DNA of 64,000 nucleotides, from NCBI RefSeq assembly GCF_002915595.1, contig NZ_PQGG01000038.1, positions 1 through 64,000 of the forward strand, read 5' to 3'. A program made the position numbers and the translations under genes. Positions 35,837-51,908 of the stretch are shown here, one piece after another (position 1 is the stretch's first letter; each line of letters starts with the position of its first letter). The notes beneath the pieces are model-generated. The model was not told the DNA's origin, ran no database searches, and saw only the letters and a program-made list of their open reading frames with translations. Source of the DNA: Zhongshania marina. Lineage in GTDB: Bacteria > Pseudomonadota > Gammaproteobacteria > Pseudomonadales > Spongiibacteraceae.

Positions 35837-36537
35837 TCATTTGCAATTCCCAGCCTTACGGTAACCAGCCGCAGCGGCTGCTTGTTCACTGCTAAATGCC
35901 ACTCGATTGTGAACTGCTACCCGATCAAAACTTGGGCAGCCCACGGGTAGATGATAGACACTGCTATTTTTGTTGCCACGAACGCCACCTTGATCGGAAA
36001 CATTTGATTCAACCGCGGCGGATTTTCTTTGTATGGGCTGGACGAGGCCAGTGGAAGAATTTTTGTGCCCTTTCTCCCACCGTGCGTTTCCAGTAACGAA
36101 TGGGTTGGAGTGCCCCATCTGAGTCGCAATACGGCGATCTCGCTCTCGCTCCCAGTCGTTTACCGGGTGGAGTTTATGCCAGGCCATAAAGAGCTGTTCC
36201 TGTTGACGGGATAGCCTGAGGTTGTATCGATCAGCCATGTAAAAGCTTATTCTCGCCACCATGCCCCGTACTTCTGGCCGAGGCTCAAATTTACGCCCCT
36301 TAAAATCAGTTTCTGCGTCACAGGCGCCATATTGAGTTGCTTCGCCCGGTATTTCGGAATATCGGAAGTTTGATCGATCGCCGTTCACTTCTCCGATCGC
36401 ATGATAGGTTGTGAAGATCTGATTCCATCACTGAAAAGACAGGATCATTAGCCTTGCAATTTGAACGGCCTCCTTGCTGCCAGCATTGACGCTGATGGCC
36501 AAAATCATACGCAGGTACAACGTGTTCCCACTCTGTC
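35837..36537 (-). pseudogene. C-terminal part of a split endonuclease I with Ada-like tail
   Basis: On the minus strand the reading begins [20 protein letters not shown], the catalytic His motif of the EndA/Dns endonuclease I family. It continues with [13 protein letters not shown] and MESDLHNL, and after a frameshift at about 36401-36404 (four bases where six are expected) with [36 protein letters not shown] and HPVNDWERERDRRIA. The C-terminus (VYHLPVGCPSFDRV ... AGYRKAGNC) resembles the Ada metal-binding tail found on some nucleases. The missing N-terminus is at 51633-51908. The gene is therefore dead twice: split and frameshifted. Confidence 0.85.
36521..36537. repeat. left attachment-site copy (attL) of the 15-kb island
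   Basis: CGTGTTCCCACTCTGTC, encoding the EWEH part of the split endonuclease. It matches 51647-51663 at 15 of 17 positions, including an identical 10-bp core CGTGTTCCCA, in direct orientation. Confidence 0.75.
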
Positions 36538-36921
36538 TTGATAAATAGTTACTTATAGGCAACTAATTTTGCTAATGCACTGATAAATAAGTATTTTTTT
36601 TGCCTGCAAAATAGTCGGCAATGCTATGAGAAAAAATATTGGTAACTACGCCATGCTTGAAGTGAGCTTTTCTCATTTTCTCAACGCCAAAGCCCATCAA
36701 ATCTACTAGCGGCTGTCCGCGTGTAAATCACTGTGTGGGAGATATTTTTGTGCCCCAACCAATCTTGAATTAGCCTGGTATCACTACCTCTGTTTGCTAG
36801 TGTGTATCCGCACGAATGCCTCAGCATATGAGGGTGAACCTTAATCTGTAATCCGGCCTTCTTCGCGGTTGCGTTCAAGAGGTAGTTAATTGCCTGCCGC
36901 GTAAACGGACCTCTCTCTCCT

Positions 36922-36929
36922 ACAAAAAG
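36922..36929. repeat. target-site duplication ACAAAAAG (left)
   Basis: Identical to 38551-38558 and directly abutting the left inverted repeat. Confidence 0.8.
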
Positions 36930-36956
36930 GCCTATTTGCATTCTAAGGTTGGAAAT
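36930..36956 (+). repeat. left terminal inverted repeat
   Basis: Starts GCCTATTTGCATTCTAAGG. Differs from the right repeat at positions 2 and 25. Confidence 0.85.
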
Positions 36957-37138
36957 CAGTTTTTCTGCCAAAGTAATGAGGAAGCGCTGCTGGTTGGAAT
37001 CTAAAATATGAGGGGCGGCATTGTACGTAAAGCAGACATTTTACCTTTCCCATGAAAATACGGAGTATGTTTCTTCAAGGGAAACGGGTGTTACTATGAA
37101 TTCAATCCAATAAGCTATTATGTTTCAAGGAAAGTTGA

Positions 37139-37525
37139 GTGAAGGTATTCTTAGTAGCCGCGCTGGCGCTATCACTAGCAATTAATGTATATCAGCTTAC
37201 GTTCATCCCAAAAGCTGCGAACTTAGTCATAGCCAATTCGTCACAAGCGGAATGCATTAAACAATTACGCTCGTCGTCTAGTGAGACAAATGTTATTGGC
37301 CCTAACTTTCTTTCCGGATATTTAGCACTAGACCTTAACCTCAACTCCAATACCTCTTTCAGTAAAGAAGTATCTGGTTGTTATTTTGACAGTTACATAG
37401 AAAACGTTACTGTAGAGAACCTAGCTGAAAATGTTCAGCTTTTACGCTCAACGGGCAGTAGTAGCGTTACATTTTTCAAAGACGCAACTTCTGACAAGTT
37501 CACTGTATACGGCCGGAGTGAATGA
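37139..37525 (+). CDS. membrane-anchored or secreted hypothetical protein, 128 aa
   Basis: GTG start behind AAGGAAAGTTGA. N-terminal hydrophobic segment (VFLVAALALSLAINVYQL), then a soluble domain with two Cys (AECIKQLRSS; SGCYFDSYIENV). No family recognised. It is cargo of the transposase-less element; a GCCCGCC/GGCGGGC hairpin about 20 bp after its stop may terminate it. Confidence 0.5.
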   Translation: MKVFLVAALALSLAINVYQLTFIPKAANLVIANSSQAECIKQLRSSSSETNVIGPNFLSGYLALDLNLNSNTSFSKEVSGCYFDSYIENVTVENLAENVQLLRSTGSSSVTFFKDATSDKFTVYGRSE

Positions 37526-37743
37526 AACATACAAACAAATTATGGCGCCCGCCGAGGCGGGCTGGGACGCTAACACGCAGGCGGCTTCGCCATTTTCGCC
37601 AGCGCGTCCGCGCCCCATATTTGGGTGTTGATATGATTCCCGCTGTCAATAAGCATGACGACATACCCGCAGACTTCTTTCATTAGCGTTGTGGATCTGA
37701 CTGGCGCTTGATACCCCATGGTTTCAGGGGCACGTTGGCTCGG

Positions 37744-38148
37744 TCAGACGATGAGTTGGTAGCAAACCCAGAAAATCATGCCTACCTGAGCGAGGAAAAA
37801 CGTGGCACGTAACAGCACAAACGCTGGCGCGGTGCTGATGAGGTGTACTAGGCTCTGCCCCACACGCGCGGCCAGGATAAAGGCCGCAAGGCCATCCACA
37901 ACGGGACTCTTACCCATTAGCGCAGCGATCACCACGACGGCAGCGAAGAGCGGAAAGTTTTCCACGCAGTTGAGATGTGCGCCTTTGACGCGGACCATAA
38001 AGGGTGGGTCGCGGTTGACTTCAGCGCGCTCCCAGTCCGCGAAGTTGCGATCCCCGAACAGCGCCATCGGCACGCGGGGAAACGCGTAAGCCAGCATCAG
38101 CAGTTGCATCCACACTACGTAAAACAGCACAGCGATAAAACCGGTCAT
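37744..38148 (-). CDS. MAPEG-family membrane protein
   Basis: 134 aa with four hydrophobic helices. Typical MAPEG signatures are DRNFADWERAEVNRDPP-type N-terminal loop, RVKGAHLNCVENFPLFAAVVV (the RAxxNxxEN-like motif) and AARVGQSLVHLIS. MAPEG proteins handle glutathione or eicosanoid-type lipophilic substrates in eukaryotes; bacterial roles are mostly unknown. Start at the ATG after GGAGAATGCCCA. The gene looks more GC-rich than its surroundings, suggesting separate origin as cargo. Confidence 0.75.
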   Translation of the reverse strand: MTGFIAVLFYVVWMQLLMLAYAFPRVPMALFGDRNFADWERAEVNRDPPFMVRVKGAHLNCVENFPLFAAVVVIAALMGKSPVVDGLAAFILAARVGQSLVHLISTAPAFVLLRATFFLAQVGMIFWVCYQLIV

Positions 38149-38523
38149 TGGGCATTCTCCATAGGTTGGATTGAGACAATCCTTGAACACTAAGCCAGCT
38201 AACAGATGCGGGAATCGCGACTACAGCTGCCAATCTATCATAAAATGCGCTTGTGTTGGAAGCGGAACAATCGGGGTTAGTCCAATTTGTGGTGCTCTCC
38301 CCCAACAACGTAATGCAAGTGACTCACTGGGTCGTTCGCTTTTTTCAGCGGTACACTTGCGTTATCGTTGTTTGCGCTGTTCGAATCCCGTCTCACTCAG
38401 GGCGTTGCCCCCTGAACACAGCGTTGAACGTCTGCTGATTGTCTTTAGGCGACCTTGACTATCAAACCAGTTTCTACCAAGTTTTGCACAAATCGGAAAT
38501 GTCGCTATCTGGATGAAATTTCA
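38149..38523. other. non-coding right part of the transposase-less element
   Basis: About 375 bp between the MAPEG gene and the right inverted repeat. Only short shadow frames are present. A GTTCGAATCCCG string near 38380 resembles a tRNA T-loop, but no tRNA can be folded around it. Confidence 0.4.
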
Positions 38524-38550
38524 ATATCCAACCTTAGAATGCAAATAGCC
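38524..38550 (-). repeat. right terminal inverted repeat
   Basis: On the minus strand starts GGCTATTTGCATTCTAAGG; pairs with 36930-36956. Confidence 0.85.
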
Positions 38551-38558
38551 ACAAAAAG
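38551..38558. repeat. target-site duplication ACAAAAAG (right)
   Basis: Exact copy of 36922-36929. Confidence 0.8.
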
Positions 38559-38883
38559 AAATGGGCTGGGATCGCTGCCTCGAACACGCAACCAGGCGCG
38601 CAATGCTCTAATCTCATCACCCTGCAGGGGCTGAGACGTTGATAAGGACCCCTTGGATCGCCGCACAAAGATTCTTCCGGCCTCCAGGTCGATATCTGAC
38701 ATCCGCACATCTATTAGCTCGGAAACCCGATAACCATGCCTGTACCCGATCAAGAGCATGCAGTAATCCCTGGTGCCATGCCTGTTCCTTTTGGCGGCTT
38801 GGAGTAGTTCCCGCACCTCAGACTCGGTCAGAAACTTTCTATCTAAACCTGACTCATCGACAGTAAGCATTGTTCGCCTCATT

Positions 38884-38898
38884 CGTTACTGGGTAACG
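38884..38898. promoter_or_regulatory. matS-like palindrome 1 at the integrase start
   Basis: CGTTAC-TGG-GTAACG, perfect 6-bp arms and 3-bp spacer, one base from the first integrase ATG. Confidence 0.7.
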
Positions 38899-38981
38899 CT
38901 CAGTATAAAACAGTCAATACCGTTAATACTATTATTATCGTTATAATGGTATTAACAGTTAATGCGGTCTGATTTTTGTTG

Positions 38982-38996
38982 CGTTAGTGGGTAACG
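38982..38996. promoter_or_regulatory. matS-like palindrome 2 (one mismatch)
   Basis: CGTTAG-TGG-GTAACG, 98 bp from palindrome 1. Between the two lies an AT-rich stretch with GTTAATAC/GTATTAAC repeats. Confidence 0.6.
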
Positions 38997-39123
38997 GTGT
39001 TTTGGTGCCGCGAACTCTTTACAGAATGGCGGCTGGGCGCAGCTTTTTTCTTTGCTTGAAAGCTCGTGGTTTCAAGGCTGCTGCTGGGCATCTCTTTACA
39101 TACTGGTCATTATGTTAAGAGTT

Positions 39124-39558
39124 TTATCTCTGACGGAGTAGGTCGATAAAATGCTCCTTCATTCGATACATCGGACAATTCCCCGGCGTGACATCTTCAA
39201 TGTACCCAAGCTCCTCTAAGTAGCTTACTGCAGGACCTATGTCTTCATGAACATCGGTGTGGTATTCGAAACAGGGCTCATCGCGGTTAACGCTCGTTCG
39301 ACTGCTCTTCACGAAGAATTCCCTAACGCCCTGTAGTTCTGGATGTTTGGCATCCTCCATCATTTCCGCAATGATCGCTGGGAATCTATTTTTTACTTCA
39401 TCCCATTGTGCTTGCCGGTTGGAGGATGACTCTTTAATTCTTCTTTTATCCGTATATTTTGCCCCGAGATAATGACCAGCCGCACCTGTGAAAGCGCCGA
39501 CCACAAACCCAACGACTAACGTGAATGGGTCCACCTGTCTCTCCCTAAAATTCACCAA
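39124..39558 (-). CDS. hypothetical protein with glycine-rich N-terminal membrane helix, 144 aa
   Basis: N-terminal hydrophobic helix (FTLVVGFVVGAFTGAAGHYLG) followed by a soluble domain (WDEVKNRFPAIIAEMMEDAK, FEYHTDVHEDIGPAVSYLEELGYIED, CPMYRMKEHFIDLL). The C-terminal half has a winged-helix-like helix-strand pattern but no clear family. Its upstream region carries the palindrome AATAGT-TAAT-ACTATT (39575-39590), a repeat shared with other island control regions. Confidence 0.55.
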   Translation of the reverse strand: MVNFRERQVDPFTLVVGFVVGAFTGAAGHYLGAKYTDKRRIKESSSNRQAQWDEVKNRFPAIIAEMMEDAKHPELQGVREFFVKSSRTSVNRDEPCFEYHTDVHEDIGPAVSYLEELGYIEDVTPGNCPMYRMKEHFIDLLRQR

Positions 39559-39574
39559 CCAAACAAATGGTTTT

Positions 39575-39590
39575 AATAGTTAATACTATT
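39575..39590. promoter_or_regulatory. GTTAATAC-type operator upstream of the 144-aa gene
   Basis: AATAGTTAATACTATT, an inverted repeat. Related GTTAATAC or GTATTAAC strings occur at about 38921-38963, 43732-43744 and 44764-44820, each before an island gene. Confidence 0.4.
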
Positions 39591-39680
39591 TTTAAATCAG
39601 GTTTTTTAGCGGTGTCGTACCCCCATCAGGAACAGTAGCTCTGTGGGAACCTCAATCTTCACAAGCTATCCATCTAGTGC

Positions 39681-40367
39681 CTATGAGCTTAAGCTGCAGG
39701 CAGAAAGCTGCTTTTGGAATATCCTATTTTCGCCTGGCTGCATCGCTAATGAATATTTCCTAAGAACGAGAACCCATCTGGAAAGATATTCACACCGATA
39801 GTTCTGATTTGGCGGCATCCACTCAGTTGGCCCCTTTGCACCCTTCGCCTGATTTAGTGCGTCGTCCACAGCAAGAAGGTTCTCAGGATCGTTCGCAAAC
39901 TTCTCTTTCAGGTTTCGAGGCCATTCCGCCGCCCCATGTATATGGGCCCATTTCAGTGGCACGATATGATCCACATCAAGATCACTAGCTCGGACATAAA
40001 CCTTGCCACTGAATGGGTCATTCCACTGGCCGGAAGATACATAACAACCGTCAGGTGAAATTCTTGTATTACCAACACTGGATGCAGCAAGAATCTCGTG
40101 GCGAGTATTCATGCAATCACCATCCAGATCCGACCAGTGAGGGTAATCCTTTCGATCATAAAGTTGACTAAACGATCGACCCTCTTTTTCTGCGTCTTGA
40201 GTGGCCGACTGGACCTGGTTATGAGCGGCCCTGCAGGAATCTCTATGGCAATGGTATTCGCCAGTGCTCTTGTTTTTATGCCCCCCAAAGGAATCAACGC
40301 CTCCGGGATGAGCAACCACAAGAAGGGGTATCAGAAGAACAGATAAAACAGCATATTCCATTCTCAT
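39681..40367 (-). CDS. secreted YHYH-HNH endonuclease
   Basis: 228 aa. Signal peptide (to about residue 20, VVAHPGG), a YHYH-type segment (FGGHKNKSTGEYHCHRDSC), then an HNH/DUF1524-like nuclease: LDVDHIVPLKWAHIHGA (DH at 133-134), ANDPENLLAVDDALNQAKGAKGPTEWMPPN and a final Tyr/Arg-rich helix. It should cut DNA outside the cytoplasm. Its ATG overlaps the MmeI-like gene's stop (ATGA), so an exported nuclease is translationally coupled to a restriction enzyme, which is unusual. No immunity gene is needed if it folds only after export. Confidence 0.75.
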   Translation of the reverse strand: MRMEYAVLSVLLIPLLVVAHPGGVDSFGGHKNKSTGEYHCHRDSCRAAHNQVQSATQDAEKEGRSFSQLYDRKDYPHWSDLDGDCMNTRHEILAASSVGNTRISPDGCYVSSGQWNDPFSGKVYVRASDLDVDHIVPLKWAHIHGAAEWPRNLKEKFANDPENLLAVDDALNQAKGAKGPTEWMPPNQNYRCEYLSRWVLVLRKYSLAMQPGENRIFQKQLSACSLSS

Positions 40368-43129
40368 GCAGACTTTTTCCGTTTAGCTTTAGGTTTTTCT
40401 GCAGGAAGCAATGAAGTGATTTTCTGGTACAGCTCGAACAAAAATGCTACGCGCTCAGTTTCTGTTGCCCAGGTCTTTTTCCCGCCGCTAGGCACATACG
40501 CCGCATCCACAGCCCGGTCTAACCTTTCATGGGCTTTCACTAGATCAGACGGCATGGTTAGAGGGTCATATAGATCGGCAAGACTGGAATTTTTATGATT
40601 AGATCTGGCATCTAGTACTTCTTGTGCGGCCTTCTTTATAGATTCTTGCTGCTTTTCGTTTGCACTCATGGGCCATGGGAAGTTGTTGTAAACGATAAGC
40701 GCTGAATACTGGTAATCACTTTTTAGCCTGCCTGTCACGCTACGAGTCCAGGACATGTGCATAGAGGAAAGCAAAACACCAAAATGGTAGAGAGTTACAC
40801 CCTCAATTACCCTGAGTTTATCTCCACACATCACACTCTCATCTAAAAATGCGATGGGTATTATTGGTCTTCGCTCCGAAGATACTTGGGGCATTGCAAT
40901 ATATTCCCCCTGCGGGATGAATTCCGTATGAAACCTAGTTGGAGAAGATGCCAATTTCTTTGTCGGGGAACTACTGCTTTTTAACCGAAATTCTCTAACG
41001 CTGGCGACTCTCTTCATTGATTCTGGCAGTTTTTTTAATTCGCCGGGCTCACAGTCGCCGAGCCACAGAATCCACCTTTCAACGTTATTAACAAATTCAT
41101 AGCCGCCTAACCATCTCTTAAAATACTTCGAAGATTGAGGTTCTTTTATCAAAAACTCTGCTTTTTCCTCAGGCGTGAAAAGATAATTCCCCCCATCAAT
41201 CGGCTTGTTCCCGCTTTGCATTTGTGGAACTTCGCAAATAGGGCTTCTTCTTCGTTCAATCAGCGCATTAGGCGCTTCAACTAAGTATGGATTTATTGCT
41301 TTGACTGAGGTTTCTTGAGGTTCTCCTGAAATGCTTTCATAGTCGAATATTTTCTTATTTGGATACCCACATCGACTAAATCCTACAATGACGCAATGGA
41401 CGGCCGCGACGCCTTTGGCCTCGTTTCTCCACTTAAATGTCCGGTGCGCAAAATCAAGCTGAATCCCTTTCGAAAACATCCAGCCCCACAACACCGCCAC
41501 TTGTTCTCCCTGGCAAATGGAGTTCGTGGATACAAATCCGCAACGAGCGCGCGCGGACATATATACCGCAGATTTCGCATACCAAGCCGCAACAAAATCT
41601 AGTAACCCTGCACTTGGTACATCCTGAAATACCACAGCAACATCTTTTCTTTGTTCGGCATCCATGTATTTCGCGCCAACAAATGGCGGGTTGCCGAAAA
41701 CGTAATTGCACCTATCCGAAGGAATTACCTCATTCCAGTCCAATCGCAGCGCGTTCCCGTGCACGACATTTGCCGACTTTACCAGCGGGACTCTTACCAG
41801 CGCCTGACCAAAGGCCTCACCGACCAGAAGGTTCATCTGGTGGTCGATCAGCCACATAGCCACCTGGGCAATCTGGGCGGGCCACTCCTCTATCTCTATC
41901 CCATGAAACTGGTCTACATCGACTCTTACATACTGATCGATAGCGTCCATCGAAAGCTGTTGCTGATCTTTTCCGTAAAGGCGCTTAATCACCTCCAGCT
42001 CCAGAAGCCGTATTTCCCGGTAACTGATGACGAGGAAGTTGCCGCATCCACATGCGGGATCGAAGAAGTTGAGCGACCCCAACTTGTCGTGGAACTCCTG
42101 TAGCTTCTTGGGTTGCGTTTTGACCTTTTCAAACTCCTCTCGCAATTCATCCATGAACAACGGCCCAATCACCTTGAGGATATTCTTCTCGCTGGTGTAG
42201 TGCGCACCCAGATTACGGCGCATATTGGCGTCCATTATGCCCTGAAATAGAGACCCAAATATGGCCGGGCTAATTGCCCCCCAGTCCAGCTCGCAACAGT
42301 CTAGCAAGGTTTCGCGCATAGAGCGGTCAAAACTGGCCTGAGGCAGGAATTCAGCGAATAGCTTGCCGTTCACATAGGGAAACGCCGCGATTTGCTCGTC
42401 GAGGTTTTTAAGGCGCTTTTCAGGAGGCGTATTGAGGGTTTGGAATATCTGATTTAGCCGTGGCGCGAGATCTGAACCATCTTCTGCTGTGCGGTCACGA
42501 ATGAAGTCCTCAAATGCACTTCTCGGCATGAAGATGCCAGTGTCGTCGGCAAACATGCAGAATAAAATCCGAACTAGATACACTTCCAGCTCGTGTCCTT
42601 CGTAGCCTATTTCCTTTAGGGCGTCGTGGAGTTGTGCCAGCTTTTCCGCTGCTTTGGTGTTTACTGGGTCCTGCTCTTTGTACTGTCGGGTTTCGTAGCC
42701 AGCTATGAAACCAAAATGAGACAGGTTCTGAGGCAGCTCAGAAAGCGGAAATTCATCGCTCTCCCCCGTATCTAAATTCCGGATTCGAAAGTTCGCAAAG
42801 TCAGAAACAATGATGTACCTGGGCAGCTCTTTATCGCTTAGACCAGGGAAGTAATCCGTCGCCTGGTCGTAAGCTGAATCCAGATTTTTGCCCCTGGATT
42901 TGTGCTCTGCTAACAGCATGCCCGGCCAGAAAAGATCGATGAAGCCGTCCTTTCCGTCAGCCTTTTTGACGTGTTTTTCAAATGCAGCCAGGCGACGGCG
43001 ACTAACCCCAAACACCTGGAAAAATTCATCCCAGAAGCTCTTTGCCTCTGCATGCTCGGAAGACTCACTCTCCCACTCACGGACAAATGCTACCGACCGA
43101 TCCCTGATCTCATTCCATGAAAGCGGCAT
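40364..43129 (-). CDS. MmeI-like type IIL restriction-modification enzyme
   Basis: 921 aa, the length of MmeI, and similar throughout to what I recall of MmeI (MPLSWNEIRD, LFWPGMLLAEHKSRGK, GYEGHELEVYLVRILFC, SPAIFGSLFQGIMD, RRNLGAHYTSE). N-terminal PD-ExK nuclease: Asp65 ... Glu75-His-Lys77. Adenine methyltransferase motifs: DPACGCGNF (357-365) and NPPF (480-483). A target-recognition domain follows (about 620-830), then a C-terminal helical region. One chain methylates one strand of its site and cuts at a fixed distance, without a separate modification gene. The site cannot be read from sequence here. Its ATG follows the stop of the MatP-like gene with no gap. Confidence 0.9.
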   Translation of the reverse strand: MPLSWNEIRDRSVAFVREWESESSEHAEAKSFWDEFFQVFGVSRRRLAAFEKHVKKADGKDGFIDLFWPGMLLAEHKSRGKNLDSAYDQATDYFPGLSDKELPRYIIVSDFANFRIRNLDTGESDEFPLSELPQNLSHFGFIAGYETRQYKEQDPVNTKAAEKLAQLHDALKEIGYEGHELEVYLVRILFCMFADDTGIFMPRSAFEDFIRDRTAEDGSDLAPRLNQIFQTLNTPPEKRLKNLDEQIAAFPYVNGKLFAEFLPQASFDRSMRETLLDCCELDWGAISPAIFGSLFQGIMDANMRRNLGAHYTSEKNILKVIGPLFMDELREEFEKVKTQPKKLQEFHDKLGSLNFFDPACGCGNFLVISYREIRLLELEVIKRLYGKDQQQLSMDAIDQYVRVDVDQFHGIEIEEWPAQIAQVAMWLIDHQMNLLVGEAFGQALVRVPLVKSANVVHGNALRLDWNEVIPSDRCNYVFGNPPFVGAKYMDAEQRKDVAVVFQDVPSAGLLDFVAAWYAKSAVYMSARARCGFVSTNSICQGEQVAVLWGWMFSKGIQLDFAHRTFKWRNEAKGVAAVHCVIVGFSRCGYPNKKIFDYESISGEPQETSVKAINPYLVEAPNALIERRRSPICEVPQMQSGNKPIDGGNYLFTPEEKAEFLIKEPQSSKYFKRWLGGYEFVNNVERWILWLGDCEPGELKKLPESMKRVASVREFRLKSSSSPTKKLASSPTRFHTEFIPQGEYIAMPQVSSERRPIIPIAFLDESVMCGDKLRVIEGVTLYHFGVLLSSMHMSWTRSVTGRLKSDYQYSALIVYNNFPWPMSANEKQQESIKKAAQEVLDARSNHKNSSLADLYDPLTMPSDLVKAHERLDRAVDAAYVPSGGKKTWATETERVAFLFELYQKITSLLPAEKPKAKRKKSA

Positions 43130-43729
43130 TTAACTCTGTTCCTTTTTTTTGTGTTGAGCAACGAGATCACTCAATAACCCATCCCAAGTTCGATTTCCTT
43201 TTAGTTCTTTAAGGGTGAAAAAAACACCCCGGCTGACAGGGATTTGAACAGCTTTATCATACAAACCCTTTTTCTGCTTATGTTTTCTTTGCCTGATCGT
43301 CCCAAGAACAGCCTCCCAATCCTTATCAGATAGATGTTCCGACACCCACGCCTTAAGCTCTTTAATTGACTCGGGATACACCTCCGAAGGAGCGGTCGAA
43401 TCTATCTCATTAATTGTCTCTTTAGCTCTTTTGAGTGTCCGCTTGTGGCGGTACGTAAGACTCTCATCAGGCTTATCACTTAGATTGGCAACAATATCCA
43501 TTGCCTGCCTTTTCCTCTCGCCACGGACCGCTTCGGAATACATGGGGTGAGGTATCAGGGCCAGTATTGCGGAGAGGGTTGAAGCAATGCTCCCGTCAAA
43601 ATCATAGATAAAACGTCGCTCAATCCGGCGGCTTAACCACTTATCCAGCTCACGACTGATATCGTACGCATTGTCTTTAGTAATTCGTGGGTTAAGCCGC
43701 TTCTTTTCGCCTTCGTGAGAATCTTTCAT
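43130..43729 (-). CDS. MatP-like ribbon-helix-helix DNA-binding protein
   Basis: 199 aa. The C-terminal 70 residues follow the pattern of E. coli MatP as I recall it: LKAWVSEHLSDKDWEAVLGTIRQRKHK corresponds to the MatP helix with W-I-D-K-H and TIRARRKRH. The segment KAVQIPVSRGVFFTLKELKG and then TWDGLLSDLV corresponds to its KKSIDLEF ribbon and two RHH helices. The N-terminal 110 residues are helical and differ from MatP. MatP binds matS (GTGAC-RNY-GTCAC); five palindromes of the same geometry lie nearby, one 48-62 bp upstream of this gene. It heads an operon with the MmeI-like enzyme and the HNH nuclease. It may regulate them or organise the island DNA. Confidence 0.6.
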   Translation of the reverse strand: MKDSHEGEKKRLNPRITKDNAYDISRELDKWLSRRIERRFIYDFDGSIASTLSAILALIPHPMYSEAVRGERKRQAMDIVANLSDKPDESLTYRHKRTLKRAKETINEIDSTAPSEVYPESIKELKAWVSEHLSDKDWEAVLGTIRQRKHKQKKGLYDKAVQIPVSRGVFFTLKELKGNRTWDGLLSDLVAQHKKKEQS

Positions 43730-43793: not shown

Positions 43794-44141
43794 TTAATTG
43801 TCTTTTGGCCTGCCGACCTTCACTTTCTCAATCCGGCGAAGCGCCTTTGACAGATCCGCGTCAGACATACTTGCTAAGGCAAGTAGGCCAGCCCGGACAA
43901 CCTCGCTCTTGTTAGCAATAACGCCTGTTTTTGCACAGGCTTCTCGCAGCTCCTGAATTAATGCGTAATCACCAGAAGGGAAAGAGAAAGTATCTTTGAT
44001 AACCTTTTCGTTACTTGGTAACGTAATCTGCCTTTGGGGGTTCGCTTGCTTTGCCGGCGCTTTTTCTGCCTTAGGGGAAGCTTCTTCCTGCTTGTTATTG
44101 ATTCCTTGCCCTCGAAGAGAGAGACCTGCGCGCTTAGCCAT
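43794..44141 (-). CDS. ribbon-helix-helix partner of ParA (ParB-like)
   Basis: 115 aa. Basic, disordered N-terminus (KRAGLSLRGQGINNKQEEA ... KAPAKQANPQ), then a strand IKDTFSFPSGDYALIQELREAC and helices GVIANKSEVVRAGLLALASMSDADL, the pattern of RHH centromere-binding proteins. The ATG lies within the ParA tail (8-nt overlap ATGGCTAA). ParA plus small RHH protein is the type Ib partition arrangement. One matS-like palindrome lies inside this coding sequence and another just after it; either could be its centromere. Confidence 0.75.
   Translation of the reverse strand: MAKRAGLSLRGQGINNKQEEASPKAEKAPAKQANPQRQITLPSNEKVIKDTFSFPSGDYALIQELREACAKTGVIANKSEVVRAGLLALASMSDADLSKALRRIEKVKVGRPKDN
44009..44023. 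promoter_or_regulatory. matS-like palindrome 4, inside the RHH gene
   Basis: CGTTAC-TTG-GTAACG, perfect arms, encoding part of LPSNEK. Confidence 0.65.
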
Positions 44142-44763
44142 TCCACACCTCCTGCAGCCAGCTCCAAAGCCGGTCGATTTCTTTGGCGGCTTTCCCGCCA
44201 GGTTCAAATTCGTAAACGGCTGTGCCGCCATTCAGGGCGTCCGCAAACGCCTCGCGTCGCGTAATATGCAGAGGGGCAACAAAAATTCCCGCATCTTCGA
44301 GCAGCATTCTAGCCTCACGAGTTTTCGACGATTCCTGTCCGTTGAGCCCAACCTGGCAGGCGTTTAAAACCACAGCGAAGGGCGGGGCCACGTTATTGAT
44401 TACGCGGGGCAGGGTACGAATATCAGCGAACCGGGGTTGAGCGGGGATCAGCGTGTAATCAGCAACCTCCGTTGCGACCTTAACCACGTCATCCACATAC
44501 GGCGGGCAGTCAAAGATGAGAAGATCGAACCCCTCGTCTTTTGCCTGGGCCGTAAGCTGCACTATGTCCTGGGTGTTCGCCTTAACCACCAAGGGCGTAT
44601 CAATCTCACGCTCAGAGGCCCATTCCGCGGCTGTTTGGCTGTGCGGATCAAGGTCGGCAACTAACACATCCATACCGCTATTCGCGGCAGCAACAGCCAA
44701 GTGGATGGTCACCGTCGATTTCCCGGACCCTCCCTTTTGACTACTTATCGCTATTGTTTTCAT
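44134..44763 (-). CDS. parA: ParA-family partition ATPase
   Basis: 209 aa. Deviant Walker A KGGSGKST at residues 10-17, then VLVADLDPHSQTAAEW, LLIFDCPPYVDD (Walker B) and the late motif LNACQVG. Short ParA without N-terminal HTH, as in type Ib systems, in which the small partner does the repression. It drives segregation of plasmid copies on the nucleoid. Upstream (44764-44831) are AT-rich GTTAATACC repeats and a matS-like palindrome. Confidence 0.9.
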   Translation of the reverse strand: MKTIAISSQKGGSGKSTVTIHLAVAAANSGMDVLVADLDPHSQTAAEWASEREIDTPLVVKANTQDIVQLTAQAKDEGFDLLIFDCPPYVDDVVKVATEVADYTLIPAQPRFADIRTLPRVINNVAPPFAVVLNACQVGLNGQESSKTREARMLLEDAGIFVAPLHITRREAFADALNGGTAVYEFEPGGKAAKEIDRLWSWLQEVWNG

Positions 44764-44816
44764 ACTGTTAATACCGTTTTAACCATTAATATAATTAATA
44801 ACGTTTATATTAATAC

Positions 44817-44831: not shown

Positions 44832-44842
44832 CAAGAAAATTT

Positions 44843-47485
44843 CTACCGTTTAGATTTACTCTCGACCTGTAGTCGCGCGGTCATGATCTCGCAGCCGTTG
44901 TTGCGGTAAGGGCAATCCTGGCACCCTCTACAAAAGTCGTCCGGGCCTTTTGTGCCAGTCTCAATCTCAACGCCTTCCTGCTGAAACTTGTCGCGAACCT
45001 TGCTAACGAACCAATCCGCGATTCCAACCAGGCGGAGATTCTTTCCAAAGATGCGCTTACGGCCTGATGTGCCGTGCTTGGCAAGGTCATTGGATCTCAA
45101 TACTTTTCCGATCCACTCTGGGCGAGACCATTCGGGGATCTCTGTCGAGGCGCTTTGCCCAAAGTTTGCGTCTAGCAGGCTCCGCATCTCCATTCCGATG
45201 TGAGTGAGCGTCACAGTGTCGTACCCTTGAGCCACTATGTTCTCTAGTGCCTCTTTCAGGGTATCGATTGGATCATCGCTCTCAATGGTTTTTTGCGACT
45301 GCCGAGCAAGAGATGCCTCTAGCTGACCTGAAAGGGCAGGATCGCCAACCAGCCGAGCAAAAACGCGGAGCGGTGCGGCTATTTCGGCAGCTCGATTCGA
45401 TCGGTTAGCGAACTCTTTGCTATAGACCTCGGCAACCTGATCAACATTCATAAACGCCCAAGTGTGAAGCTCGTTGCGCAGCGCGGCCATTTTCTGCTCA
45501 TCTTCTGCGGTCAGGTCACGCAGGTGTTCAGACTGAAAGCCCTCTGGAATCGAGCGAGTCTGAACTCGAATCATCCGAGAGCCCAGAATGTCATCAGCAC
45601 CCAGCGTGTTGTTGATCATCTTCACGCCATAAAAATTCAGGCGCTCAGTTTTCATTGTCTTAACGTCGGTCCATACCTTCACGCCGGAGTACTTGTTGTA
45701 AGAAACCTTCAGCGCCTGTACTAGCTCGCTGAACTGCGCATCCTTGCCGCCTTTGGCGCTGATAGCCTCCAAATCGTCCATCACGACGAATCCTCGACAC
45801 TCATCGATGTGTCGGGCTGCTGTGGCAGCAGAAACCTGCCCAATGACGTTACCGTTCGCGCAGAGCTTGGACATGCTAATACCGGTCGCCGTCTTACCGG
45901 ACGCAGCGGGGCCATTCAGCAGGATCAGAGGTACAGACTCAAAAACAGACTGCAAGAACGTGACAGGTACCGTGAAGGCCAGAACGGCGTAATCCTCTTC
46001 GTATGGCAGCCAGACGGATGCCTTTAGAAGATCGACTACATCGCCCACGATCTCGGCAATTGATCTAACTTTGGCCTTTCCATCCACGTATTTGCTGATC
46101 GACTGCCAGCTCCAGGTTGAATACTGATTGGGTTTTGGCTCTTTTGATATCAGAGTCCCATCTGTCAGGCGCAGAACACGCTGGGAGTCGGGCGTACCTT
46201 TTGGAGCAGGGGACTTGTAATAGCTATGCGTTGTCCCGTCAGAGCGCACAACAAGCGTTTCCAGGCGCTCCAGTGGTACCAACTGACCTCTTTCATCGAT
46301 ACCTTGCTCTCGCATCATGACCTGCGCGATGTAGTAGAGGTGACCGCCGTGGTAAGCGCCGTTGATATCAACAGGGTCGTAGCTAACCCGACCAAACTGC
46401 TCTGGCGAGCCGTTGCTGTTCTTAACTTGGACGGAGACGACAGTGGCGTTATTGACCTGCTGATTGAAAAGATGGACATCTCCACCGTTTTGCCAGAAGT
46501 CAGTCCAGTCCTTGCCGAGAGAATCGGGCACCTTGACCCGATGAAGCTCTCTACCAGCGAGCAGTGCAATCCGCTCAGCCATAGCATCGCCTGCCTCGTC
46601 ATTGTCATGCCCCAACAAGACAGCCTCCCAGCGAGACCAGAACTCTGGACCCTTCCATTCCTGAGGAATTCCAGATCCGTGAGTGGAGCTCACAATCAGG
46701 TAATCGCCGAGAATTCCAGCTTCTTCCAATGCCTAGCGATGCCGCCACACATCCTTAATGCCTTCGCAGACAAACATATAGCGCTGGCTATAGACGGCAT
46801 CAGCGTAGTAGCACTGAGGACTTCCTTTCATCCAGCCATTTTTATCAACAGGGTTCTGGGTGACGCCAGGGATGTTGTAATAACCGTACTTTTTGAAAAA
46901 CTCGCCGTTCCGCCGACCCGTCATTGGGAATACTAGGGCGTTTTCCTGAGTAACACCGTCCTTGGGTGTGTACGGCGTTGAAAGCCCGAGCTTGAAACGC
47001 TGTATTGTTTCGACTGACAAGCCTCGACCACGGAGGTACTTGATTGCACTCGGACTTTCCATTAGTCGCTTATGAAGTCTAGCGTTGAACTCTTCGTTCA
47101 AAGGCCTCAGCACTTCTGACGCAAAAGCCGGGGTTCGTTGCTCCGGTTTTTTGATCGGCAGGGATATCACCTCTCCATCTCTAATTCCGAGATACTCTTT
47201 CGCCTCTTTGATGGCATCCGCTTTGCTCCCGCAAACCGCCGCCCACAGTTCCAACAGGTCTCCACTGTCTCTCGGATTAGCAAAATCGCACCACACGCCA
47301 GCCTTGTTTCCTGATATGCGGACTTTTAATGAATTTCCATCATCCCCATGAATGTTTCCAGCAACCCACTCCACGCCATCTTGCTTGCCATTGGGTAGTA
47401 AGTGTTTCGCGACATCAAGGGCGCGGTCAGCCAGCAATGATGCAATTTGGCTGACAGGTACCTTCGTTATCGTTGCGCCGCTCAT
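44843..47485 (-). pseudogene. primase-helicase interrupted by one in-frame amber codon
   Basis: Codons from 47485 to 44843 form one frame of about 880 residues broken only by TAG at 46733-46735. N-terminal part: primase-like VWCDFANPRDSGDLLELW, a TOPRIM start (FVCEGIKDVW) immediately before the TAG. After it the frame resumes at ALEEAGILGDYLIVS with TOPRIM acidic DNDEAG, then a helicase ATPase (GPAASGKT, Walker B VVMDDLEA) and a C-terminal Cys cluster (CRGCQDC ... NGC). The stop falls within TOPRIM, between its conserved Glu and Asp residues, so both halves alone are incomplete. A CAG-to-TAG change would explain it. Readthrough, a TTG restart at 46729 or a sequencing error are alternatives. 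ATG overlaps the upstream stop (TAATG). Confidence 0.8.
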
Positions 47486-50400
47486 TAGGCCGCCTCACTT
47501 TTCTTGTTGTAGTTATCAATGACGCCATTCTGGTAGGCTGAAAAGAACCTAAAGCCATCAGCAACCTGCAGGTGCGCGTAGTTCTTAAGAACCGTTTCAA
47601 GCTTGTCATGCAGGATATGTGCGACGACCTGGTATCCATTAGGGTTGTTTTTAAGATAGTCGGTAGCAATGATGTGCCTCACTCCGTGAGGACCAAATCC
47701 TGGGCAGTCAGGAAGAATTGCCGCCGACCACTCGTCAATTTTGAGTGACAGCCTTTTGGGGATAATGGGGGCCGCTTTATTTTTCTCGCTATTAGCATTT
47801 AGCGCGGGACGGAATACATAGTCGCAGATATCCGCACCTGCAAGATTGGGGCGGTGATTTTTCAGATAGTCCTCGATATCGGGCCACAAGCGTTCAGGAA
47901 GGCCCATATCGTATGGATCTTTAGCTGCACCATGTTCATTCTTAAAGTCCGAAGGAGAAAATCTCAGCCGCCACTCACCAGTTTCTTTGTTTTGGTAGAG
48001 ATTTCCGGAGCCGTTTTCCCGCCAGGTCATAATCGAAAACATTTTTATGCGCAGGGGGTTCGCTGTAATCATTTTAACTACCAGCTCATCGCGCATGTGC
48101 AGCGCAAGTTTAATTGGGGCTCTCTTCTCTGATGGTCGAGAATTCTCCATTCCCTCTATAAGTTCAAGCAGCGCCTCCATAGGGTGTGTGCGAGCCAGTA
48201 TCCCTTGAAGGGGGTCCTTGGGGTCCCGTGTCTGCTTAACGTGATTGCCCTTTTTCAAAGATTTTTCGAAGCGCCTGATTTCTTTATGGCACTCTTCACA
48301 CGCACTTCGCCATTCATCAGGGCTTAGCGATGGGGAAAGTTTTTGTCCGTACTCGGGGTGCTGCCACAAAAACCCAACATCTTTAGCCAGCAGCATTGCA
48401 GCAAAGCCAAGAAAATTTTCTGTATCAGTGTTATACCCGCCAGACCGAAGGCGCTTGAATTCAAGGAACCTGTGAATCACATCAAACCGCGAAAACAGTG
48501 AAAGGGTAAGGTCTTCTTTCGCAAGCCCCTCTCCACAAAGCTTAGGCTCGCTGCAGTCGTTTGGAAGAATCAAGTAACCAAAGAATCGCTGAAGGTTCTG
48601 GCCGCTTATTGCAGCCGAGGCGGAATACTTCCCGTCATCCAAAATGCCGCGCTCCAGCTCTATTGAAGATGGGGCTGCTCGACTCAAGTCAACCGATGAC
48701 CAGCTGGTGTTCCGCTCAATTCCCGGCGGAAGAAATGCTGCCGTTTTATATTTTTTCAGATCACTCCACTCTTTCTCCAATGTAGGGGGGAAGTGTCTGA
48801 GTCCATACGGGTAGTCTCGCAACCCGCGCGCTTTTTTGCGGTAGGGTGTAGCTAACCCCCTTTTCTTCTCCGCTACTTTTTTCTTTGCCTGCCTTTTGGG
48901 AAGCCTCATCTCTAAAGTCCCTTCCTGGACTCCAAGCTCTTTTTCCAGCACCGCAATCTTCGGTCGGCTTCGAAGAGAGGCCGCTACCCCCTTGCACCAG
49001 CCTCCAAATGTGGCGGGGCTAACACCAACTCTCCGCCCTATCTCTTCTTGTGTAACACCCTCTCTGGATCGTTTAATAAGAAGCGCCCGAAGAGCCTCAG
49101 AGAAACTCTCCGGCAAACCATCACCAATGACGGTGTCCCGGTATAAGTCATGCCAGAAGTTAAGGTGTGATGCTCGATCCTTAACTGTCTGATGTGCTCG
49201 ACCTGCATTCCTTAGCATTTCAAGGTGGTTTTCCAATCGATCTTTAAATCCAGGTCCTAGCAAAACGACTGCGTTGTCACTCTTGGATGCCTCAAAGCTT
49301 TCCATGAACCGCTTGAGCGCTGTGAGGCGATTTTTGACGGCTGGTATTTTTCTGGCACTCACCCCCCCTTTGCTCAGAAGGTATCGCTTTCGCAAATCTC
49401 GAAATGTGTGAGACCAGGAAGACGCTTCATTAGATTCAAGGTCAAGCCTGTCAACCAGCGTTCCGGCAGGAGCCCCCAGCAGAGCCTCAAGATTACATAC
49501 AGTTGAGTATTTCGCAGCGGACGGCACAGCTTTTCCGTATCGCCACGAATACAGCGTGCTTTCCATAATACCCAGAGAAGCTGCCAATGGCTGAAGGCTT
49601 TTTCCTGTGCTTTTGTAGCGAATAGCCAGAGCGTTTAGCGCTCCACTAAAAGAATCGGGTAAGTAGTCATTTGCCCGTGTTATCTCATACCCAAGGCGCC
49701 CTACCAGCGTCCCGAGAGGAACATTAAGGGCTTTTTCAAGGTCAGTCAGCATCGGAATAGATTGCACGCCTGGCTTCAACCCCTTGCGCCAGCGAAGCAA
49801 AACAGCATCGAATGTCCCGATGGCTTCACATAAATCGCGCTGTGAATTGCCCGTGGCAATACGGTATCTATCGATAAGCTCAGTAAGGGCTTTACCAAAA
49901 TCGTCCGGCAGATGATCTAGCCCATCATCAACTTTGAATCCAAGGCGTTTTAATAAGGTTCCATGCGGGGAATCCAGCGCCTCTTCTAGGCTAGATATAA
50001 TGGGGAGAGCCTTTATTCCAGGTTTACCTTGGCCAGACCTCCACTTATAGAGCCTCTCTGTATCTGTGCCGCAAGAGGTGGCCAGGTCAGAAAACCCCAG
50101 TCCTGTAATTGCGCGCCAGTTTTTAGCCAGCATATCAAGCGCAGCATGAAAGTCTTCGGGAATATCTTCATCAGGAATGCGCAAACGAAAACCAAGGCGG
50201 CCCGTTAATGATCCTGAAGGCACACCGAGTTCTTCCTCTAGTCCTCTAACAGATGGGCAAGAAACAACCCGTGGAGTGGCCTTTCCATTGCGCCAAGAGT
50301 AGGCGGTGTGGGTAGATAAACCGAGGCGACTTAATACACCCGCAAATGAACCACCCTGAGCTTGAAATCTGCGGATGCTTTCATCCAGAGCCTCATGAAA

Positions 50401-50520
50401 CGAAGCTGGAAGATCATCGATCAAAGCTTGATCTGCAAGATACTGTCTTTGATCACCGCCTTCTTGAAGGCGGTATTCAGCAGCGTTTGGATGGGTTGCA
50501 GGCCCAAAGTTATTGTCCAT
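47485..50520 (-). CDS. five tandem HTH units fused to a tyrosine recombinase domain
   Basis: 1011 aa from the ATG with GGGGA about 9 nt upstream; an earlier ATG at 50583 gives 1032 aa (numbering below). Units of about 75 aa at 58-132, 141-216, 225-299, 308-381 and 489-561 share L-P-x-x-F-x-x-A-L, an HTH-like segment ending W-R-x-G (Trp 97, 181, 265, 347, 529) and LExxLxxPxGTLxxRLG. The C-terminal domain has the recombinase residues R845 (NPLRIKMF), K881, H966-x-x-R969 (PHGVRH), H992 and Y1002 (KNYAHL). Recombinases with several DNA-reading HTH units are not a class I know. Its gene is coupled to the primase-helicase. Might excise the island or act as a regulator-recombinase. Confidence 0.75.
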   Translation of the reverse strand: MDNNFGPATHPNAAEYRLQEGGDQRQYLADQALIDDLPASFHEALDESIRRFQAQGGSFAGVLSRLGLSTHTAYSWRNGKATPRVVSCPSVRGLEEELGVPSGSLTGRLGFRLRIPDEDIPEDFHAALDMLAKNWRAITGLGFSDLATSCGTDTERLYKWRSGQGKPGIKALPIISSLEEALDSPHGTLLKRLGFKVDDGLDHLPDDFGKALTELIDRYRIATGNSQRDLCEAIGTFDAVLLRWRKGLKPGVQSIPMLTDLEKALNVPLGTLVGRLGYEITRANDYLPDSFSGALNALAIRYKSTGKSLQPLAASLGIMESTLYSWRYGKAVPSAAKYSTVCNLEALLGAPAGTLVDRLDLESNEASSWSHTFRDLRKRYLLSKGGVSARKIPAVKNRLTALKRFMESFEASKSDNAVVLLGPGFKDRLENHLEMLRNAGRAHQTVKDRASHLNFWHDLYRDTVIGDGLPESFSEALRALLIKRSREGVTQEEIGRRVGVSPATFGGWCKGVAASLRSRPKIAVLEKELGVQEGTLEMRLPKRQAKKKVAEKKRGLATPYRKKARGLRDYPYGLRHFPPTLEKEWSDLKKYKTAAFLPPGIERNTSWSSVDLSRAAPSSIELERGILDDGKYSASAAISGQNLQRFFGYLILPNDCSEPKLCGEGLAKEDLTLSLFSRFDVIHRFLEFKRLRSGGYNTDTENFLGFAAMLLAKDVGFLWQHPEYGQKLSPSLSPDEWRSACEECHKEIRRFEKSLKKGNHVKQTRDPKDPLQGILARTHPMEALLELIEGMENSRPSEKRAPIKLALHMRDELVVKMITANPLRIKMFSIMTWRENGSGNLYQNKETGEWRLRFSPSDFKNEHGAAKDPYDMGLPERLWPDIEDYLKNHRPNLAGADICDYVFRPALNANSEKNKAAPIIPKRLSLKIDEWSAAILPDCPGFGPHGVRHIIATDYLKNNPNGYQVVAHILHDKLETVLKNYAHLQVADGFRFFSAYQNGVIDNYNKKSEAA

Positions 50521-50613
50521 ATCATCATCCCCATACCTGTCATGGTTGACAGGGCAGTTGGGTGAGGCGAAAATACTGGACATCTGGTCGGCTAAAATCA
50601 GATGTCTTTATAG

Positions 50614-50641
50614 CGGCCCGCGTGTTCCACCACGCGGGCCG
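50614..50641. terminator. GC-rich hairpin between LexA-like and HTH-recombinase genes
   Basis: Perfect 11-bp stem CGGCCCGCGTG/CACGCGGGCCG with 6-nt loop. The T-run (GTTTT) is on the plus-strand side, so for the leftward genes it may act as an attenuator or mRNA end rather than a strict terminator. Confidence 0.6.
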
Positions 50642-50664
50642 TTTTCGCTTCTACCAGTGTTTAA

Positions 50665-51027
50665 TCAATCGTTTCCTTCAAACAGATCTCGCTGTTCCAG
50701 GGGAGCGCCGATGAGTGTTAGTTTTTCAACACCCGCGCTAGTAAACCTTAAATTCCGACGCCTTCCGGCAATCCTCATTACGTATCCTTTTTTTGCCAAG
50801 GCTTCTACATAGCCCTGGGCTGCGGCCGCCTGAACTCCCATTGCTTCACCAATTTGCTTTTGAGTAGGCATATGCCTGTTCTTCGACCAAAACGTAGCCA
50901 AGTACCGCATTACGCCCTCCTGCTTTTTGGTGAGCGGAGGCAGCTCATCTAAAAACTCAGCCATTGTTCCATCTACCCTGTTTTCGGCCTGGTGATTAGC
51001 ATATGCCTCTAGTTCTACAAATGCCAT
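50665..51027 (-). CDS. LexA-type winged-helix regulator without protease domain
   Basis: 120 aa. LTKKQEGVMRYLATFWSKNRHMPTQKQIGEAMGVQAAAAQGYVEALAKKGYVMRIAGRRR-type sequence follows the LexA DNA-binding domain (LTxRQ ... PTxxEIxxxLG ... LxxLxxKGYI). The LexA peptidase half is absent; the tail ends EQRDLFEGND. It therefore cannot self-cleave, and its control must differ from SOS LexA. Two starts are possible (51027, or 50964 after GGAACA). It lies beside the iteron region and is a candidate repressor of island genes or a binder of the iterons. Confidence 0.7.
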   Translation of the reverse strand: MAFVELEAYANHQAENRVDGTMAEFLDELPPLTKKQEGVMRYLATFWSKNRHMPTQKQIGEAMGVQAAAAQGYVEALAKKGYVMRIAGRRRNLRFTSAGVEKLTLIGAPLEQRDLFEGND

Positions 51028-51164
51028 ATATACATACCATGTAAACCGGGGTGCAAATTACTATGTGAACTACTATACCTTATTTATAGCGTCCCGCAAG
51101 GACAAGGTTTATATCGTCCAATTGGATGCCTAAGAAAACTGAACCGGCAGACAAAAAGGTGGTA

Positions 51165-51330
51165 CTGGTACGTGGCGTGTTGCTGGTACAAGATGAGAAA
51201 AATACCCGTAATTCGCGGGGTTGAGGGTGGGTAGCAGCGAACCAGGTAGGGGGACCAGAGGGTACCGCGAAAATTTACCGGTGCAGTGCAACTGGTACGT
51301 TATAAATTCTACTGGTACAAACACTGGTAC
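51165..51330 (+). repeat. five CTGGTAC direct repeats
   Basis: All five are exact; start-to-start spacings 18, 109, 20 and 12 bp. Extended form A/T-CTGGTAC-A/G. Confidence 0.6.
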
Positions 51331-51348
51331 ATACTAATAAATACAATA

Positions 51349-51370
51349 ATATACTTATATATAAGTATAT
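51349..51370. repeat. 22-bp perfect AT palindrome
   Basis: ATATACTTATA and its complement, within an AT-rich stretch of about 300 bp. Confidence 0.65.
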
Positions 51371-51632
51371 TTATCATTATTAAGCCTACTATAAGCAGTG
51401 GGATGAAAAATGCTGGATCACTATCTGGAACTAGAATTATTTGTATATATTTCAAATAGTTAAGTTTTAAATGAACCAGATGCTAGTTGTAATTATTCAC
51501 ATCATTATTTTTTTTCTTTAAAGCCAATTTTCTCTCACTTTCTGTCCTAATAACTAAAATTATTCGGGGTAGTAACTATTAAGATATATAACTTATTGAT
51601 TTATATTTATTTATAATTAAATCTTTCACTTT

Positions 51633-51908
51633 TTATGCGTACAGGGCGTGTTCCCATTCAGTCCGTGCTGCTCTTTTTTCTTGTGCGCGCGTCACATAAC
51701 CGCAGCTAGACAGTTCAGTGCGTCCGCCAGATCGGCCAACCCACTGCCAGTCGCAGCCACAGTAAAAGTCGCCATCATCTGCACGATCAAAATAGACATA
51801 GGTTTTGCCGGCTACTTTCGCTTGCTCAAAATTAGTTGGTGCCGCCAACGATAATCCGTGTCCAAGCAGAACTACGGCTAATAGCGCGAATTGAATGATT
51901 TTTCCCAT
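51633..51908 (-). pseudogene. N-terminal part of split endonuclease I
   Basis: Signal peptide (MGKIIQFALLAVVLLGHGLS), then the family's KVAGKTYVYFDRADDGDFYCGCDWQW, SSCGYVTRAQEKRAARTEWEH. The sequence then leaves the family (ALYA, stop) exactly at the catalytic His, where the C-terminal part at 36537 takes over. Same strand and right order as an intact gene. The periplasmic nuclease would degrade DNA; the fragment cannot. Confidence 0.85.
51647..51663. repeat. right attachment-site copy (attR) of the 15-kb island
   Basis: CGTGTTCCCATTCAGTC, 15 of 17 identical to 36521-36537, direct orientation, at the same codons of the endonuclease gene. Confidence 0.75.

What the first reader, a model, noticed from the sequence alone, without database searches (positions are those of the whole stretch)
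36521..51663. 15.1-kb plasmid-like island inserted exactly in the catalytic motif of an endonuclease I gene
The two halves of one endonuclease I gene lie 15.1 kb apart on the same strand in the right order. One ends and the other begins at EWEH, and each carries a copy of CGTGTTCCCAyTCwGTC. Between them are integrase, ParA/RHH, primase-helicase, recombinase fusion, restriction-modification and an iteron/AT-rich region, but no transfer genes. This looks like an integrative plasmid or satellite that rides on a conjugative element by disabling a nuclease gene, which may itself matter because periplasmic nucleases harm DNA uptake. I know of no named element with this set.
Basis: partly seen in the sequence, partly recalled or inferred. 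Interest (0 to 1): 0.88.

Follow-up and report, generated by a model that had tools for sequence, protein, structure and literature searches.

The report
Small plasmid lodged in a nuclease gene
A small plasmid seems to have inserted itself into a DNA-cutting enzyme gene of a larger, transferable plasmid, exactly at the codons of the enzyme's active site, and both now look broken and stuck together; the docking place is unusual but the event is otherwise of an understandable kind.

Summary
One endonuclease I gene is cut at its EWEH codons by 15,126 bp flanked by 17-bp direct repeats with 2 mismatches. It lies on a ~90-kb contig with a conjugative-plasmid backbone. The island carries a module of small circular plasmids: winged-helix gene, HTH-repeat tyrosine recombinase, toprim primase-helicase, ParA; relatives are Acinetobacter plasmids, Thermus pTAYT1_11 and Deinococcus pDrdII. 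So a small plasmid became integrated into a larger one, most likely through its FimB-like integrase. It now looks immobilised: a 1.6-kb transposon splits the integrase, the primase-helicase has an in-frame stop, and the nuclease C-half a broken frame. Uninterrupted homologues exist, but no exact empty site was found. No second insertion of this kind was found; 0 of 20 family loci carry the core within 3 mismatches. Independently, 8 of 15 close copies of the pCAR1-type nuclease gene are cut off at the 5' side, so such genes break without this element. That disabling the nuclease helps transfer is unproven. New variant of a known kind.

The parts
51640..51908 (-). N-terminal half of the endonuclease I gene, ending TEWEH, then 4 codons and a stop from the island (ORF 51633-51908)
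   Evidence: tblastn to plasmid endonucleases; 57.6% identity to the intact G018 gene
35837..36537 (-). C-terminal half of the endonuclease I gene, beginning [10 protein letters not shown]; frame broken after LHNL
   Evidence: Pfam Endonuclease_1 102.5 bits; 64% and 78% identity of its two frames to the intact G018 gene
36521..36537 (.). 17-bp att core copy, C-half side
51647..51663 (.). 17-bp att core copy, N-half side; the two differences between copies are synonymous third-codon changes in T-E-W-E-H
38505..38882 (-). first part of a split FimB-like tyrosine integrase gene (ORF runs on into the transposon)
   Evidence: Pfam Phage_integrase profile 1-98; NCBIfam tyrosine-type DNA invertase 1.3e-25, below its curated cut-off
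36681..36971 (-). second part of the split FimB-like integrase gene, about 140 bp from the att core
   Evidence: Pfam Phage_integrase profile 96-170
36930..38550 (.). transposon without a recognised transposase that splits the integrase: perfect 22-bp terminal inverted repeats (36932-36953, 38527-38548), flanked by ACAAAAAG on both sides (boundaries set by eye)
   Evidence: right end and repeat found on the Alteromonas and Marinobacter plasmids opened
37744..38190 (-). MAPEG-family membrane protein, cargo of the inner transposon
   Evidence: Pfam 1.2e-16
39681..40367 (-). HNH-type nuclease (GmrSD_C and YHYH domains) with a leader-like N-terminus (by eye)
   Evidence: 49% identical over 142 aa to a pTHAF38_a protein
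40364..43129 (-). MmeI-type single-chain restriction-modification enzyme, 921 aa, all five MmeI domains
   Evidence: Pfam
43130..43729 (-). protein of unknown function, 199 aa
   Evidence: no Pfam, NCBIfam or PHROGs hit
43794..44231 (-). small ORF downstream of ParA; RHH/CopG-like by position only
   Evidence: no library hit
44134..44763 (-). ParA-type partition ATPase
   Evidence: NCBIfam ParA_partition 4.3e-41, below its cut-off; PHROG 164
44843..47485 (-). toprim primase-helicase gene split by an in-frame stop (ORFs 46733-47485 and 44843-46729)
   Evidence: second piece 39-51% identical to 7 plasmid homologues
47485..50583 (-). tyrosine recombinase, 1032 aa, with five HTH repeats
   Evidence: family profile matches XerC-like, XerD and XerA in PDB; no Pfam integrase hit
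50665..51027 (-). LexA-type winged-helix DNA-binding protein, first gene of the module
   Evidence: Pfam 1.9e-11; homologues before the recombinase in 13 of 19 family loci
51163..51646 (.). candidate origin: five CTGGTAC repeats (51165-51330) next to an AT-rich stretch (100-bp minimum 19% GC)
   Evidence: the top 8-mer count (4) is only as high as the maximum in 200 shuffles, so weak

Best explanation
A small, non-conjugative plasmid integrated site-specifically into the endonuclease I gene of a conjugative plasmid of the MOBH/MPF_F kind (contig of 90 kb). The likely agent is the island's own FimB-like tyrosine integrase, recombining a 17-bp core that encodes T-E-W-E-H. Since then the island has travelled as part of the larger plasmid. 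A transposon has split the integrase, the primase-helicase has a stop codon and the nuclease C-half has a broken frame. The cointegrate therefore now looks fixed: the small plasmid can probably neither excise with its own integrase nor replicate alone. Shown: the junction, the gene content, the plasmid relatives, the lesions. Inferred: which recombinase acted, the order of events, that the contig is a plasmid, that the island moves with it.
For: 17-bp repeats at both junctions, with the integrase gene about 140 bp inside one. The repeats differ at 2 positions, both synonymous, as expected if attP and attB were separate copies of nuclease sequence. The recombinase, primase-helicase and ParA genes recur together on 7 closed circular plasmids: Acinetobacter L012, L014, L015, L017; Deinococcus L013; Thermus L016, L019; the LexA-like gene was detected on 5 of these 7 (not L016, L019). 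The primase-helicase is 39-51% identical to all seven. Host contig has a conjugative-plasmid backbone. Lesions.
Against: No circular form or exact empty site seen; no reads available. G+C content hardly differs (island 0.485, rest of contig 0.470). No second element in an EWEH site was recognised among 369 class genomes, 47 of them (own included) with a nuclease above cut-off (table read only). None of 20 family loci has the core. Nearest integrase relatives opened in four genomes show no split nuclease beside them. The best family label for the integrase is 'DNA invertase'. The island has a second tyrosine recombinase with its catalytic residues. The stop and frame lesions could in principle be sequencing errors.
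Confidence: 0.72

Rival explanations
1. The large HTH-repeat tyrosine recombinase, not the FimB-like enzyme, carried out the integration; its multiple HTH units help choose the site.
For: R, K, second R and Y of the tyrosine recombinase set are conserved in 18 of 18 sequences and the H in 17 of 18; the family profile hits Xer recombinases. This copy has five HTH repeats against 0-2 in 17 relatives. It lies about 1.1 kb from one junction.
Against: It is present on all 7 closed circular relatives opened, none of which carries the core, so it more likely serves plasmid maintenance.
Confidence: 0.15
2. The island entered by transposition or illegitimate recombination; the 17-bp repeat is an aged target duplication and EWEH is coincidence.
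For: The same codons are split in pWW53 by what look like Tn3-type ends, so unrelated insertions do land there.
Against: No transposase was recognised among the island ORFs scanned, and the sequence at the two island ends shows no evident inverted repeat (by eye); a 17-bp duplication is long for DDE elements (recalled); both differences are synonymous.
Confidence: 0.1
3. Inactivating a plasmid-borne nuclease is adaptive: it removes an IdeA-like barrier to DNA uptake, or protects DNA during transfer, and the element was selected for it.
For: ICE-borne Dns homologues block natural transformation in Vibrio cholerae (PMC7693049, passages). 8 of 15 close copies of the pCAR1-type gene are cut off at the 5' side.
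Against: Truncation fits simple dispensability equally well; 7 of the 15 are full length; the island brings its own HNH nuclease with a leader-like start; competence of this host was not examined.
Confidence: 0.1

Closest known systems
Thermus aquaticus pTAYT1_11 (CP020571; TaqIII)
   Same: Order recombinase, primase-helicase, ParA, small gene (copG in the paper), single-chain R-M (PMC5587805 passages)
   Different: Free plasmid; one HTH repeat; no FimB-like integrase hit and no core
Deinococcus wulumuqiensis pDrdII (CP031161; DrdII)
   Same: LexA-like, recombinase, primase-helicase, ParA; type IIG R-M (PMC6430315 passages)
   Different: Free plasmid, 40% identity in the primase-helicase; no core
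Small Acinetobacter plasmids (pYUSHP14-3, pTT1-3-3, p3_060092, pANC7892.1)
   Same: Same module, 49-51% identity in the primase-helicase
   Different: No FimB-like integrase hit, no core; recombinase lacks detectable HTH repeats
SXT/R391 ICE nucleases IdeA and SxnA
   Same: Dns-type nuclease genes carried by conjugative elements (PMC7693049 passages)
   Different: Intact there, interrupted here; IdeA and SxnA were not aligned with this gene
IncP-7 plasmids pCAR1 and pWW53
   Same: Plasmid nuclease of the same long type; split within the EWEH codons in pWW53
   Different: The pWW53 insert is about 62 kb with what look like Tn3-type ends, and no 17-bp repeat
[quoted passage not shown]
   Same: Putatively non-mobilizable integrative elements, median 15,688 bp, with two tyrosine recombinases (PMC10214605 passages)
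   Different: SE core is intA-tfp-intB-srap with 6-bp spacers; that gene set was not seen here

Membership tests
pTAYT1_11 / pDrdII / Acinetobacter small-plasmid replication family (no name found) | LexA-like, tyrosine recombinase, toprim primase-helicase and ParA genes together, in this cyclic order | tested here: met
pTAYT1_11 / pDrdII / Acinetobacter small-plasmid replication family (no name found) | Autonomous circular replicon | tested here: not met
   integrated in the assembly; primase-helicase has an in-frame stop; so a former member, not a working replicon as sequenced
Integrative element with site-specific integrase | Direct-repeat att sites with an adjacent integrase gene | tested here: met
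Integrative element with site-specific integrase | Intact integrase gene | tested here: not met
   split by a transposon
Integrative element with site-specific integrase | Excision to a circle | not testable with these tools
   no reads available
ICE / IME | Own conjugation genes or relaxase inside the island | tested here: not met
   none among the 14 island ORFs given to Pfam
SE (strand-biased circularizing integrative element) | intA-tfp-intB-srap core | tested here: inconclusive
   no such set seen in annotation; SE proteins were not aligned
Endonuclease I (PF04231) | Family profile and EWEH motif | tested here: met

The most novel reading that the evidence does not exclude
A plasmid lineage uses the catalytic EWEH codons of plasmid-borne endonuclease I genes as its docking site. 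It hitch-hikes on conjugative plasmids while switching off their anti-DNA-uptake nuclease. Its core sequence keeps the amino acids TEWEH because it was copied from, and selected to match, this conserved motif across hosts.
Probability: 0.12. Interest if true: 0.75.

Novelty: new variant of a known kind. Interest (0 to 1): 0.45.

Why it matters
It shows a small plasmid family, scattered from Thermus to Acinetobacter, being absorbed into a conjugative plasmid through a conserved protein-coding motif. It also suggests that nuclease genes carried by conjugative plasmids are often broken, which bears on whether plasmids gain or lose by blocking DNA uptake. If a second insertion at the same codons is found, endonuclease I would become a recognised integration site; the papers listed by the searches did not seem to describe one, judged by titles and the beginnings of abstracts, in a library of open-licence papers.

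Tried and rejected
Scans of viral contigs with the primase-helicase, alone and as an alignment, found no relative. The recombinase has no match in phages; in plasmids it has 66 records, none covered over 80%, mostly rhizobial, and the rows shown are 22.7-27.5% identical over the C-terminal part. The island as DNA has no near-identical copy in plasmids: 8 records match, each over about 1%, the transposon end. Samples of order, class and phylum gave only the window's own genome for the recombinase (1 of 293) and the primase-helicase (1 of 274; 1 of 398). The one genome-contig scan gave 12 loci; 11 of them plus 8 plasmid loci were searched for the nuclease halves, with no hit (L042 left out as the same record as L015). 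L015/L042 are one record, L043/L044, L047/L048 and L015/L018 look like near-duplicates, so '17 relatives' and '20 loci' overstate independence.

Integrase relatives: the C-half in 2 of 293 order genomes (own and G184), the N-half in 4 of 274 class genomes (own, G414, G439, G383), 824 plasmid records and 101 phage records, all under 60%. The four genome places opened hold no split nuclease. In G439 a nuclease lies about 8 kb off, but its frame is 305 aa and unsplit. Two plasmids with the nearest C-halves list no endonuclease I gene. A 22-kb spacing in pT75-VIM was two separate nuclease genes. One search was a wasted Pfam query. The AlphaFold job for the recombinase C-terminal part was not finished at the last try, so no predicted fold is claimed.
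Full report
What is there. The window is bases 1-64000 of contig C32 of an unnamed 4.13-Mb genome; the contig is 89,996 bp. One endonuclease I gene is interrupted. On the minus strand the N-half runs from 51908 to the core at 51663-51647, and the C-half from the core at 36537-36521 to 35837. Core to core is 15,126 bp. The copies are GACTGAATGGGAACACG and GACAGAGTGGGAACACG; both encode T-E-W-E-H, and their two differences are synonymous third-codon positions. EWEH as the catalytic motif of this family is recalled knowledge, not a call.

Host replicon. The contig carries TraC and TraU, and ORFs matching ParA, ParB, MobH relaxase, TraD and other transfer genes of Microbulbifer pTHAF38_a, a plasmid that PLSDB types as conjugative, MOBH, MPF_F. 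Its TraC ATPase is 70-71% identical to those of seven Vibrio tubiashii, Marinobacter and Microbulbifer plasmids, the best of 294 records. The contig ends show no exact overlap, so circularity is not shown; calling it a plasmid is an inference from the backbone.

The empty site. Uninterrupted relatives exist. A 322-aa gene on the 84-kb contig G018:C4 (same family, other genus) is 58-78% identical over the pieces. Apart from it, that contig shares only three further frames with C32, at 25-36% identity, two of them ParA- and ParB-like, so the place is not syntenic. Intact genes are annotated on pCAR1 and on a Marinobacter SBY-1 plasmid. An exact empty site at the same locus was not found.

The island as a plasmid. 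Homologues of the second primase-helicase piece lie on 15 plasmid records, 13 covered over 80% or more. I opened eight of the 15. In these, and in the loci, the recurring cyclic order is LexA-like, tyrosine recombinase, primase-helicase, ParA, at times with other ORFs before ParA. Of 19 loci searched, a recombinase hit was found in 17, a LexA-like hit in 13 and a ParA hit in 15; some contigs are short, and in L045 the recombinase follows the primase-helicase. Two relatives are documented plasmids with studied R-M enzymes: pTAYT1_11 with TaqIII (PMC5587805, passages) and pDrdII with DrdII (PMC6430315, passages). The island carries an MmeI-type enzyme. Base composition gives little help: island 0.485 G+C, rest of the contig 0.470.

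The recombinase. It has five HTH repeats (residues 58-135, 141-219, 225-302, 308-385, 490-567; 26-41% identical to each other). The 17 homologues compared have none (8), one (8) or two (1), by a profile built from the window's own repeats, which favours the window. R845, K881, R969 and Y1002 are conserved in 18 of 18 sequences and H966 in 17 of 18. A profile of nine sequences matches XerC-like, XerD and XerA entries of the PDB, E 2e-4 to 0.12. Pfam alone does not recognise it as an integrase.

The lesions. The FimB-like integrase is in two pieces covering profile positions 1-98 and 96-170. The spacer has perfect 22-bp inverted repeats, found nowhere else in the genome within 3 mismatches, and ACAAAAAG on both sides. 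The same repeat occurs on the two plasmids opened of the eight that match its right end. The primase-helicase pieces share a frame and are separated by a stop. The nuclease C-half changes frame after LHNL. Intact homologues of all three genes exist.

Is the site special? In 369 class genomes, 48 had an endonuclease I match and 47 (own included) passed the cut-off; reading the table, I saw no other gene broken at EWEH, but did not inspect the short matches. Among plasmids, 15 of the 46 records matched by the pCAR1 gene are at least 88% identical: 7 are full length, three of them near-identical pCAR1 records, and 8 are cut off at the 5' side. The 8 have 6 distinct breakpoints by alignment, at nucleotides 114, 213, 219, 236, 257 (pWW53 and pDK1) and 795 (two records of one strain); EWEH starts at 256. 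I looked at the junction in 7 of the 8. One of them, p1160-VIM, still has an annotated endonuclease ORF that is shorter at the start, so not every cut-off gene is proven dead. In pWW53 the 5' part lies about 62 kb away, same strand, with what look like Tn3-type ends at both sides (a Tn3 transposase is annotated beside the 3' part). So plasmid nuclease genes are often broken by other mobile DNA, which explains tolerance of the insertion without a strategy. The grouping of four breakpoints within 45 bp is post hoc and may be chance.

Literature. ICE-borne Dns homologues prevent transformation in V. cholerae (PMC7693049, passages), and conflicts between MGEs and hosts over transformation are discussed in PMC11472951 (passages). 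Searches listed 2, 2, 10 and 9 papers; by title and abstract beginning none describes endonuclease I as an integration site. Where I opened endA hits the passages shown were strain genotypes or a remark on DH5alpha. The pWW53 paper (Yano 2007) was seen only as a reference entry, so whether it already describes that nuclease split is unknown to me.

Verdict. An ordinary kind of event, plasmid integration by site-specific recombination, at an unusual site, now degraded. The most novel reading, a dedicated docking site in nuclease catalytic codons, rests on one case.

Noticed in passing
NC_008275.1 (pWW53) 38635-38826 and 100973-101685; reference L037 3634-4602: The IncP-7 nuclease gene is split within its EWEH codons by a ~62-kb stretch with what look like Tn3-type ends; 8 of 15 close copies of this gene are cut off at the 5' side.
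   Followed up: partly
window 36930-38550: Transposon without a recognised transposase, 22-bp inverted repeats, carrying a MAPEG gene; the same repeat on an Alteromonas macleodii plasmid (near mer genes) and a Marinobacter plasmid.
   Followed up: partly
window 47485-50583: Tyrosine recombinase with five HTH repeats against 0-2 in 17 relatives.
   Followed up: partly
window 18921-27314: A 2169-aa ORF that begins like SpvB/RHS-type proteins, beside shorter RHS-like ORFs (by eye, no library search).
   Followed up: no
window 39681-40367: HNH nuclease with a leader-like start in the island, 49% identical over 142 aa to a protein of pTHAF38_a.
   Followed up: no
L040 12890-14470: An Acidobacteriota MAG contig of 186 kb carries the same plasmid module beside a 527-aa frame that looks like a serine recombinase (by eye), which may mean integration by another enzyme.
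   Followed up: no
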